Source of the DNA: a virus
Reading direction: 5' to 3' (one strand)
DNA length: 57,336 nucleotides
IMG/VR virus record: IMGVR_UViG_3300028790_000006
Coordinates: 1 to 57,336 of that record
The notes under the pieces are model-generated. The model was not told the origin of the DNA. It saw only the letters and a program-made list of their open reading frames with translations, and did no database searches. Below, piece after piece: positions 4,205-6,081 of this stretch. How positions within the stretch are numbered: position 1 is the stretch's first letter; each line of letters starts with the position of its first letter. The position numbers and the translations under genes are program-made.

Positions 4205-6081
4205 GCGCCGGGGACGTGCGGGTGGTGCGCTACCACGGCGACGCGCTGGAGGCCCTGAGCGGGCTGGCCGATGACCTGGTCGACGCGATCGTCACCGATC
4301 CGCCCTACGAGCTGGGGTTCATGGGCCACACCTGGGACGCGTCGGGCATCGCGTACAACGTCGAGCTGTGGAAGCACTGCCTGCGCGTGCTCAAGCCTGG
4401 CGGACACCTGTTGGCGTTCGGCGGGACGCGGACGGCGCACCGGATGGCCTGCGCCATCGAGGACGCCGGTTTCGAGATCCGCGACTCGATCGCCTGGCTG
4501 TACGGGTCCGGCTTTCCGAAGTCGCTCGACGTCAGCAAGGCGATCGACAAACGCCGCGACGACGGTTCCGACGTCGCGCGTGTCGCGGCCTGGCTCGCAG
4601 ATCAAGCCGAGGCCGCCGCCGTCACCCGTGCCCATGTTGATGCTCACATGGGCACCTCCGACATGGCCGGCTGGTGGCTGTCCCGATTGCCGCACCGCGC
4701 GCAGGTCCCGCAGTGGGACCAATGGCTGCATCTGCGCGAACTGATCGGATTCAGCGACGAGATGGACATTGAGGTCTGGCGCCTCAATGGACGCAAGGGC
4801 ACGCCAGGTGAGCCATGGGCGAATGCCGAGGTGCTCGCCATAGATGAGCGATGGAACGAACCCGGCGTTGTCAACGCGGGCCAGGGCGATCGTGAGCGCG
4901 TCAGTCGAGCGATCAAGGCCCCCGCGACCGACGACGCGAAGCGCTGGGCGGGGTGGGGCACGGCGCTCAAGCCGGCCCATGAGCCGATCGTCGTTGCCCG
5001 CAAGCCGCTGGTCGGGACGGTGGCCGCGAACGTGCTGGCCCATGGGACCGGGGCACTCAACATCGACGCGTGCCGGGTGGGCGATGCCCCCATCACGCAG
5101 CATGGCCGCTCGGCCGGCCAGAGCGACAGCATGTCGGGGCCAAACTGCGCCGAGCCCGCAGGGCGAGCCTGGGTTGGCCGCTGGCCGGCCAATGTCGCCC
5201 TCGACGAGGTGGCCGCGGCCGAGCTCGACGAGCAGAGCGGGACGTTGAAGTCGGGCGCGAATCCGACCCGGCGCAGCAGTGACAAGTTCCGTGACGCCTA
5301 CGGCGAGTTCGCCGGCCAGGAGGAGTGCACGCCGGCCCGGGGTGCCGACGCCGGCGGGGCGTCGCGGTTCTTCCCGGTGTTCCGGTACCAGGCCAAGGCG
5401 CCCACGCGTGAGCGCCCGGAGTACTGGCGACCTTCGTGCAACTGTGAAACAGTTAAGCCATGGCCGGATCAATCACCGCAAAGGGCTATCGACGCATCAG
5501 AATCGGGCGTAGGCAAGTCATGGAGCACGTCTACGTCTGGGAGCGGGAGCACGGCCGAACAGTTCCCGACGGGCACGACGTCCATCACCGGAATGGCGAC
5601 AAGCTCGACAATGACCCCGGAAATCTTCAACTCGTCACAAAGCTTGAGCACAAGCGCATCCATTCCGGATGCGAACTCCGCGGCGATGTCTGGTGGAAGC
5701 CCTGCGGTGTCTGTCGACGACTCAAGCCGGTCGACGCCGAGTATTGGTATTTCTCGGCCGAAGGATGGCCGCTCTACGGTCGCTGCCGACCCTGCCACAT
5801 TGAGCGAGTGGTCAGAGACAAGCGTCTGCGTAAACTGCGGCGCACCGGCTAGGCGTGAAGCGCATGCGACCGTGAAGCCGCTCGACCTCATGCGCTGGCT
5901 CGTCCGGCTGGCCACGCCGCCCGACGGAATCGTGCTCGACCCGTTCGCGGGCAGCGGCACGACGCTCGAGGCCGCGGTGACCGAGGGCATGCGCTGCATC
6001 GGTATTGAGCAGAGCGCGGACTACCTGCCGCTGATCGATGCCCGGATGACCCGGGCCGGCCTGACGGCGGTGGCGGCGTGA
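4201..6081 (+). CDS. DNA methyltransferase (N6-adenine/N4-cytosine type) interrupted by an overprinted HNH gene
   Basis: This 626-residue site-specific DNA methyltransferase transfers a methyl group from S-adenosylmethionine to a base. The catalytic TDPPYELGFMG lies at residues about 36-46, and the AdoMet-binding DPFAGSGTT near residue 580 follows HATVKPLDLMRWLVRL, the usual order for the beta class. Between about residues 410 and 560 the frame runs through a nested HNH gene (5460..5852) and reads as a Ser/Thr-rich, probably disordered insert flanked by CNC and CVNC, perhaps two halves of a zinc knuckle. Start is the GTG coupled to the upstream gene. It may protect phage DNA from host restriction. 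Whether it is active with the insert is unknown. Confidence 0.88.
   Translation: MSAGDVRVVRYHGDALEALSGLADDLVDAIVTDPPYELGFMGHTWDASGIAYNVELWKHCLRVLKPGGHLLAFGGTRTAHRMACAIEDAGFEIRDSIAWLYGSGFPKSLDVSKAIDKRRDDGSDVARVAAWLADQAEAAAVTRAHVDAHMGTSDMAGWWLSRLPHRAQVPQWDQWLHLRELIGFSDEMDIEVWRLNGRKGTPGEPWANAEVLAIDERWNEPGVVNAGQGDRERVSRAIKAPATDDAKRWAGWGTALKPAHEPIVVARKPLVGTVAANVLAHGTGALNIDACRVGDAPITQHGRSAGQSDSMSGPNCAEPAGRAWVGRWPANVALDEVAAAELDEQSGTLKSGANPTRRSSDKFRDAYGEFAGQEECTPARGADAGGASRFFPVFRYQAKAPTRERPEYWRPSCNCETVKPWPDQSPQRAIDASESGVGKSWSTSTSGSGSTAEQFPTGTTSITGMATSSTMTPEIFNSSQSLSTSASIPDANSAAMSGGSPAVSVDDSSRSTPSIGISRPKDGRSTVAADPATLSEWSETSVCVNCGAPARREAHATVKPLDLMRWLVRLATPPDGIVLDPFAGSGTTLEAAVTEGMRCIGIEQSADYLPLIDARMTRAGLTAVAA
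5460..5852 (+). CDS. HNH endonuclease encoded in another frame inside the methyltransferase
   Basis: A 130-residue HNH nuclease lies wholly within the methyltransferase coding region but in a different forward frame. The core is clear: EHVYVWEREHG, then PDGHDVHHRNGDKLDN with the catalytic histidines, then LQLVTKLEHKRIH. A C-terminal zinc finger follows (CGVC near residue 85, CRPC near residue 112). The ATG at 5460 has no evident ribosome site; ATG 5520 (MEHVYVW) is an alternative. HNH genes of this kind are usually mobile homing endonucleases. Here both frames stay open, so insertion did not truncate the host gene. Confidence 0.8.
   Translation: MAGSITAKGYRRIRIGRRQVMEHVYVWEREHGRTVPDGHDVHHRNGDKLDNDPGNLQLVTKLEHKRIHSGCELRGDVWWKPCGVCRRLKPVDAEYWYFSAEGWPLYGRCRPCHIERVVRDKRLRKLRRTG

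What the first reader, a model, noticed from the sequence alone, without database searches (positions are those of the whole stretch)
5460..5852. HNH endonuclease overprinted inside the DNA methyltransferase gene
A full HNH protein is read in a different frame while the methyltransferase frame stays open for all 131 codons, becoming a Ser/Thr-rich linker between its catalytic and AdoMet-binding halves. Homing endonuclease genes usually sit in introns, inteins or between genes. An intruder whose alternative frame is a tolerated linker would be a distinct route to neutral insertion.
Basis: partly seen in the sequence, partly recalled or inferred. Interest (0 to 1): 0.76.

Follow-up and report, generated by a model that had tools for sequence, protein, structure and literature searches.

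The report
Homing endonuclease hidden inside methyltransferase gene
A DNA-cutting, probably self-spreading gene sits inside a phage DNA-methyltransferase gene in a different reading frame, and selection keeps the host gene readable straight through it; this kind of element was first described in 2025, but this one belongs to a second family, at a different site, that we found only in uncultured viruses.

Summary
ORF 5460-5852 encodes an HNH_3 endonuclease (Pfam E 4e-17; AlphaFold pLDDT 95; best solved match the homing enzyme I-HmuI). It lies in the +2 frame of an intact N6/N4 methyltransferase (MTase), whose own frame stays open across it and is predicted disordered there. In this window alone openness is unremarkable (P=0.36). 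In relatives it is not chance: in 28 distinct contigs carrying this HNH family, the HNH is nested at the same MTase site in the same register, with 0 MTase-frame stops against 29 expected from synonymous shuffling. Free-standing HNH relatives match expectation (925 against 921 stops). A second family replicates it (30/30 open). HNH and host MTase divergences are uncorrelated, which fits mobility. 109 uninvaded MTases have a median 13-residue linker here.

The kind is already published: the 'ShiLan domain' (PMC11855218). New here: another HNH family, another insertion site (before MTase motif HxTVKP), statistical evidence of dual coding, Shine-Dalgarno sites at many HNH starts (the ShiLan paper reported none), a paired CxC/CxxC signature flanking the linker (possible zinc clasp), and altered TVKP codons in invaded alleles (possible target scars). 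The last two are inferences.

The parts
4204..6081 (+). Host gene: N6/N4 DNA methyltransferase with DPPY before the AdoMet motif; the ORF could start at TTG 4156
   Evidence: PDB sequence relatives of the C-terminal part are CcrM, RsrI, MboIIA
4297..4308 (+). Catalytic motif DPPY
   Evidence: Invariant in alignment A1
5419..5859 (+). Whole inserted segment as judged against empty sites (left edge after ...KAPTRERP, right edge before AHATVKP); edges good to a few codons
   Evidence: Empty relatives L044 ...AKAPTKERPKVDGVAHPTVKPLELMRW and L017 ...AKAPGAERPSANGVAHPTVKPLDLMRW
5437..5445 (+). MTase-frame CNC, left half of the proposed Cys4 clasp
5449..5460 (+). MTase-frame TVKP just before the HNH start, resembling the TVKP motif at the right edge
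   Evidence: Read directly from sequence
5460..5852 (+). HNH_3 endonuclease ORF, +2 frame relative to the MTase; in-frame TAA at 5454-5456 just upstream
   Evidence: AlphaFold pLDDT 95.0; Foldseek top PDB hit I-HmuI 1u3e, probability 0.99 but E only 0.056
5583..5624 (+). HNH catalytic core HHRNGDKLDNDPGN
   Evidence: Motif present in 27 of 28 nested homologues
5446..5820 (+). MTase-frame linker predicted disordered (model residues 415-539, pLDDT below 50) while the MTase core is above 90
5827..5838 (+). MTase-frame CVNC, right half of the proposed Cys4 clasp
5863..5880 (+). MTase motif HATVKP, candidate recognition/cleavage region of the HNH in empty alleles
   Evidence: TVKP in 157 of 165 uninvaded but 16 of 28 invaded MTases
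5938..5964 (+). AdoMet-binding motif DPFAGSGTT

Best explanation
This is a mobile HNH homing-endonuclease gene that lives inside an MTase gene without intron or intein. The HNH is translated from an internal start in the +2 frame. It would cut the conserved HxTVKP-coding region of empty MTase alleles, and repair would copy the element in (inferred). Ribosomes reading the MTase pass through the element and add a disordered loop of about 150 residues between the catalytic and AdoMet halves, so the host enzyme stays made. Stops in the MTase frame are removed by selection (shown statistically). The +2 register is favoured because in it a stop arises only at NTA or NTG HNH codons followed by particular bases, so HNH genes are much more often open there than in the other sense frame (shown). 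In the window's subfamily a CxC pair before and a CxxC pair after the loop may bind zinc and clamp the two ends together (inferred).
For: Same site, same register, open frame in all 28 distinct homologues: 0 stops against 29.0 expected under synonymous shuffle, product of openness probabilities 2e-18. Nested HNHs of all types open in +2: 40 of 43, against 15 of 148 free-standing relatives (Fisher 4e-25); free-standing ones show 925 stops against 921 expected, so the null is calibrated. Prediction made before the scan and met in a second family: 30 of 30 distinct nested ShiLan-type HNHs open, 0 stops against about 51 expected. HNH identity and MTase identity are uncorrelated over 210 pairs (rho -0.04), e.g. 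L181/L185 HNH 61%, MTase 25%. Other sense frame almost never open (0-6% in shuffles; 1 of 148 free HNHs). HNH core conserved in 27 of 28. In 14 of 26 the HNH frame has a stop within 3 codons upstream of the start, which demands internal initiation. Shine-Dalgarno-like sites at 28 of 60 nested HNH starts against 14% of control start codons, p 3e-9. No Rfam intron in the insert. Disordered loop in the model. CxC and CxxC co-occur 10/0/0/18, p 8e-8.
Against: No HNH cleavage, homing or MTase activity has been measured. The window's own HNH start has no Shine-Dalgarno site. The cysteine co-occurrence is confounded by shared ancestry, and no zinc site was modelled. Product probabilities treat 33-78% identical homologues as independent. 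In L181, L182, L186 and L190 the MTase is interrupted just after the insert, so some hosts do lose the intact enzyme.
Confidence: 0.82

Rival explanations
1. The insert is a self-splicing intron (or intein) that carries an HNH, and the open MTase frame is incidental.
For: HNH genes commonly ride in group I introns; the insert edges echo the neighbouring MTase motif (TVKP), and the ShiLan authors saw a similar echo.
Against: No Rfam intron match in the window or five related loci. Outside the HNH ORF only about 40 and 10 bases of insert remain, too little for an intron core. No intein domain in Pfam. Introns would not need a stop-free host frame, yet 28 of 28 and 30 of 30 are stop-free.
Confidence: 0.04
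2. Open frame by chance: GC-rich sequence simply leaves a long second frame open, and the MTase is a decaying gene.
For: For this window alone P(open) is 0.36, and the window has many long spurious ORFs.
Against: Family-wide 0 against 29 and 0 against about 51 expected stops, with free-standing HNH controls on expectation; includes low-GC cases, e.g. L135 with 45% GC. MTase motifs stay intact in relatives as little as 24% identical.
Confidence: 0.04
3. The HNH is not a homing enzyme but a functional second product kept by the phage, for instance a partner of the MTase in a restriction-like or anti-restriction role.
For: Every near homologue except L285 is found inside this MTase family, which could also mean functional coupling. 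Best solved match is weak (I-HmuI E 0.056).
Against: Several unrelated HNH types sit at at least four different sites of the same MTase family, up to two in one gene (L170, L190), and most MTases (about 95% of those sampled) have none; HNH and MTase histories do not track. This is the pattern of parasites.
Confidence: 0.08
4. The HNH is produced as a fusion to the MTase N-half by programmed -1 frameshifting.
For: The +2 register equals a -1 shift, and it is nearly constant.
Against: In-frame stop directly upstream of the HNH start in the window (TAA 5454-5456) and within 3 codons in 14 of 26 homologues leaves no room for a shift; no shared slippery heptamer was seen on reading the upstream sequences; register is explained by stop geometry.
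Confidence: 0.02

Closest known systems
ShiLan domain of mycobacteriophage DNA methylases (Arsenault, Gosselin and Gogarten 2025, PMC11855218; Gosselin et al. 2023, PMC9957025)
   Same: HNH gene read out of frame (+2) inside the same MTase family, MTase frame open, no intron or intein, patchy distribution
   Different: Different HNH family (window HNH 33% identical to the Filuzino ShiLan-type HNH), different site (before HxTVKP instead of before AFEPIVVARKP), flanking Cys pairs; the paper reports no ribosome-binding site, whereas we see GGAGG 4 nt before an internal GTG in ShiLan
Pacc40 gp60 and Applejack out-of-frame HNH insertions (PMC11855218, PMC12613952)
   Same: Hidden out-of-frame endonuclease in a phage methylase
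   Different: Pacc40 is in a divergent helicase-methylase; Applejack was not examined here
I-HmuI, HNH homing endonuclease of a group I intron (PDB 1u3e)
   Same: Best structural and profile match to the window HNH
   Different: Carried by a self-splicing intron, not by an overprinted host gene; the match covers about 60 residues and is weak
Free-standing HNH homing endonucleases of phages (Mob/Seg type; from general knowledge)
   Same: HNH gene beside or inside its target gene; L285 carries a window-type HNH just downstream of an uninvaded MTase
   Different: Those sit between genes or split the gene; here the host frame is threaded through

Membership tests
Out-of-frame HNH insertion element (ShiLan kind) | HNH ORF nested in an MTase gene in another frame | tested here: met
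Out-of-frame HNH insertion element (ShiLan kind) | MTase frame open through the insert | tested here: met
   Window and all 28 distinct homologues
Out-of-frame HNH insertion element (ShiLan kind) | Insert absent from close MTase homologues | tested here: met
   109 uninvaded MTases, linker median 13 aa; empty sites L044, L017
Out-of-frame HNH insertion element (ShiLan kind) | Mobility: element history differs from host gene history | tested here: met
   rho -0.04 over 210 pairs; indirect
ShiLan domain itself | Same insertion site and same HNH family | tested here: not met
   Site differs and HNH 33% identical: same kind, not the same element
HNH_3 endonuclease (PF13392) | Profile match above gathering score with HNH core | tested here: met
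   61.9 bits against cutoff 24.8; core in 27 of 28
Homing endonuclease | Cuts empty allele near insertion site and is copied in | not testable with these tools
   Only indirect: patchy distribution, altered TVKP in invaded alleles
Group I or II intron | Intron RNA core | tested here: not met
   No Rfam hit at gathering threshold
Intein | Hint splicing domain in the MTase frame | tested here: not met
   Pfam finds only MTase domains in the MTase frame; overprinted MTase frame matches no PHROG

The most novel reading that the evidence does not exclude
There is a broad class of splicing-free homing endonucleases that persist by frame threading: unrelated HNH genes have repeatedly settled at four or more sites of one MTase family, always in a register that lets ribosomes read through, are held there by selection against host-frame stops, and in one family have gained a zinc clasp that closes the resulting loop.
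Probability: 0.5. Interest if true: 0.8.

Novelty: new variant of a known kind. Interest (0 to 1): 0.6.

Why it matters
Selfish endonuclease genes need a way not to kill the gene they enter. Introns and inteins solve it by splicing. These elements appear to solve it by being readable in two frames, which is a testable third solution. The comparative set assembled here gives a calibrated demonstration that the host frame is under selection across the overlap, explains why one register dominates, and offers dozens of natural replicates for studying how an overlapping gene pair arises by insertion and not by gradual overprinting. It also means some phage MTases annotated with odd Ser/Thr-rich inserts carry unannotated endonucleases.

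Tried and rejected
Single-protein scan of viral contigs with the window HNH found nothing; the two-sequence alignment found 20 loci. First HNH profile iteration drifted on the N-terminus and was replaced. GenBank phages (50,697 records) hold no close member of the window-type family: best hits cover half the protein at about 44%; plasmids only 2 weak hits. Sampled bacterial genomes: 0 of 395 in the class of a Streptomyces genome and 1 of 398 (the known L144) in the phylum of L144; these samplings score only the top candidates and are weak negatives. Idea that the Ser/Thr richness is selected: excess over synonymous shuffles is small and accompanied by higher hydrophobicity (z 1.26), so not supported. 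Idea of a duplicated target motif at both edges (TVKP twice) fits the window and ShiLan but is loose in L009 and L011; kept only as a lead. Frameshift fusion and intron readings rejected as given under rivals. L269 and L259 looked like counter-examples but are a different MTase family split by an HNH; L292 carries a second HNH that does break its MTase, so frame-breaking insertions exist but are rare. The first attempt to submit lacked fields.

Full report
The finding. ORF 5460-5852 on the + strand encodes a complete HNH_3 protein, and the surrounding methyltransferase (MTase) ORF 4156-6081 has no stop across it. The HNH lies in the +2 frame relative to the MTase. The MTase has DPPY before the insert and HATVKP plus DPFAGSGTT after it; its C-terminal part resembles CcrM, RsrI and MboIIA in the PDB. 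The window is an uncultured virus record whose terminase is closest to actinobacterial phages.

Is it more than chance? For this window alone, no: codon-order shuffling leaves the MTase frame open in 36% of trials, synonymous shuffling in 56%. The HNH itself is real: AlphaFold gives mean pLDDT 95 and the best solved match is the homing endonuclease I-HmuI (Foldseek probability 0.99 but E 0.056; profile E 0.015). The same DNA read in the MTase frame gives a stretch of about 125 residues with pLDDT below 50, while the MTase core is above 90.

Relatives. A tblastn of the HNH in GenBank phages pointed to mycobacteriophage methylases. Those loci (ShiLan, Bipolar, Filuzino, MISSy and others) carry a different HNH in the same relative frame at a different site of the same MTase family. 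A literature search then found this published as the ShiLan domain, an out-of-frame HNH without intron or intein (PMC11855218; earlier paper PMC9957025). Scans of viral and genome contigs with an MTase alignment gave further nested HNHs: L009, L071, L135, L144, L170 (two in one gene) and, L011. L144, from a Bacillota genome bin, has a homologue of the window HNH (57% identity) at the same site and register.

The window's own family. A scan with the window and L144 HNHs returned 20 loci, every one nested in the same MTase at the same site, +2 register, MTase frame open (one is cut by a contig edge). A wider scan added more. After removing near duplicates, 28 distinct members show 0 MTase-frame stops against 29.0 expected when synonymous codons are shuffled, product of openness probabilities 2e-18. 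Over all HNH types, 40 of 43 distinct nested HNHs are open in +2 against 15 of 148 free-standing relatives (Fisher 4e-25). Free-standing HNHs show 925 stops against 921 expected, so the null is well calibrated. Of the three nested exceptions, L011 is open in the +1 register, L292 has a second HNH that truly breaks its MTase, and L269 is a different MTase family. One window-type HNH, L285, lies just downstream of an uninvaded MTase.

Replication. An alignment of ShiLan-type HNHs was then scanned with the prediction that nested members would be open in +2. Thirty of 30 distinct nested members are open, with 0 stops against about 51 expected (the other MTase-flanked hit, L371, is a 327-residue protein not lying between the MTase halves). 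So ShiLan-type elements are far more widespread than the published phages.

Why one register. Shuffles leave the other sense frame open in 0-6% of trials, and only 1 of 148 free HNHs is open there. In the +2 register a host stop needs an NTA or NTG codon followed by particular bases, which is rarer. The register therefore follows from the filter; no frameshift mechanism is needed.

Empty sites. In 109 uninvaded MTases the segment is short (median 13 residues, maximum 67) and lacks the Ser/Thr tract. Compared with L044 and L017 the insert runs from about 5419 to 5859. HNH and MTase divergences are uncorrelated over 210 pairs of invaded genes (rho -0.04), which is expected for an element that moves between host genes.

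Translation of the HNH. In the window an in-frame TAA sits 3 bases upstream of the ATG, and in 14 of 26 homologues a stop lies within 3 codons upstream, so a frameshift fusion is excluded in those and internal initiation is needed. Shine-Dalgarno-like sites precede 28 of 60 nested HNH starts against 14% of control start codons (p 3e-9). For ShiLan this is GGAGG, 4 nt before a GTG, although the 2025 paper reported no ribosome-binding site. The window's own start has no such site, so how it is initiated is open.

Two leads, both inference. First, in the MTase frame a CxC pair before and a CxxC pair after the insert occur together in 10 of 28 homologues including the window, and neither occurs in the other 18 (p 8e-8, not corrected for ancestry); a zinc site there would close the loop. 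Second, the motif right of the insert is TVKP in 157 of 165 uninvaded MTases but 16 of 28 invaded ones (p 5e-7), and four invaded lineages carry 5-7 base insertions exactly between T and V that create a stop. That suggests the HNH's target is there and that invaded alleles bear escape scars.

Verdict. What is added is a second family at a new site, quantitative evidence for selection on the host frame, a simple account of the register, and two testable leads on loop closure and target site. Cleavage, homing, methylation and zinc binding are all untested.

Noticed in passing
L181, L182, L186, L190 just 3' of the HNH: 5-7 bp insertions exactly between the T and V codons of HPTVKP create a stop; in L181, L182 and L186 a GTG or TTG start lies at or within a few bases of that stop in the frame of the C-terminal half, so the MTase may be made as two coupled pieces.
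   Followed up: partly
L005 2332-2350 and ShiLan-type loci L368-L410: GGAGG a few bases before an internal start of the ShiLan-type HNH, which shortens the published HNH and supplies the ribosome-binding site that the paper did not find.
   Followed up: yes
L170 3160-3618 and 4105-4548; L190 639-1199 and 2459-2896; L189 around 408-779 and 1057-1476: Two different out-of-frame HNH genes nested in one MTase gene.
   Followed up: partly
L011 3833-4426 and L189 around 408-779: A related pair of HNHs nested in the +1 register, where the host frame reads as a charged, glycine-rich linker; P(open) by shuffle only 0.002 for L011.
   Followed up: partly
L150 3531-4415 (- strand): A reverse-strand zinc-finger and Vsr-like nuclease ORF lies inside an MTase whose two halves are in different frames.
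   Followed up: no
window 3125-3742: GIY-YIG endonuclease-domain gene about 400 bases upstream of the MTase; possibly a second homing enzyme.
   Followed up: no
window 6078-6386: Small FHA-domain protein whose GTG start overlaps the MTase stop (GTGA), followed by a DEAD/ResIII helicase at 6305-8125.
   Followed up: no
window 16713-21380: 1555-residue protein with a Phage Mu F domain, HeH, SAP/Rho_N and a C-terminal PI3/PI4-kinase-like match, looking like a capsid-borne multidomain effector.
   Followed up: no
window 45586-46104: A second, free-standing HNH with an AP2-like domain.
   Followed up: no
window 53125-53214 (-): One tRNA gene by Rfam.
   Followed up: no
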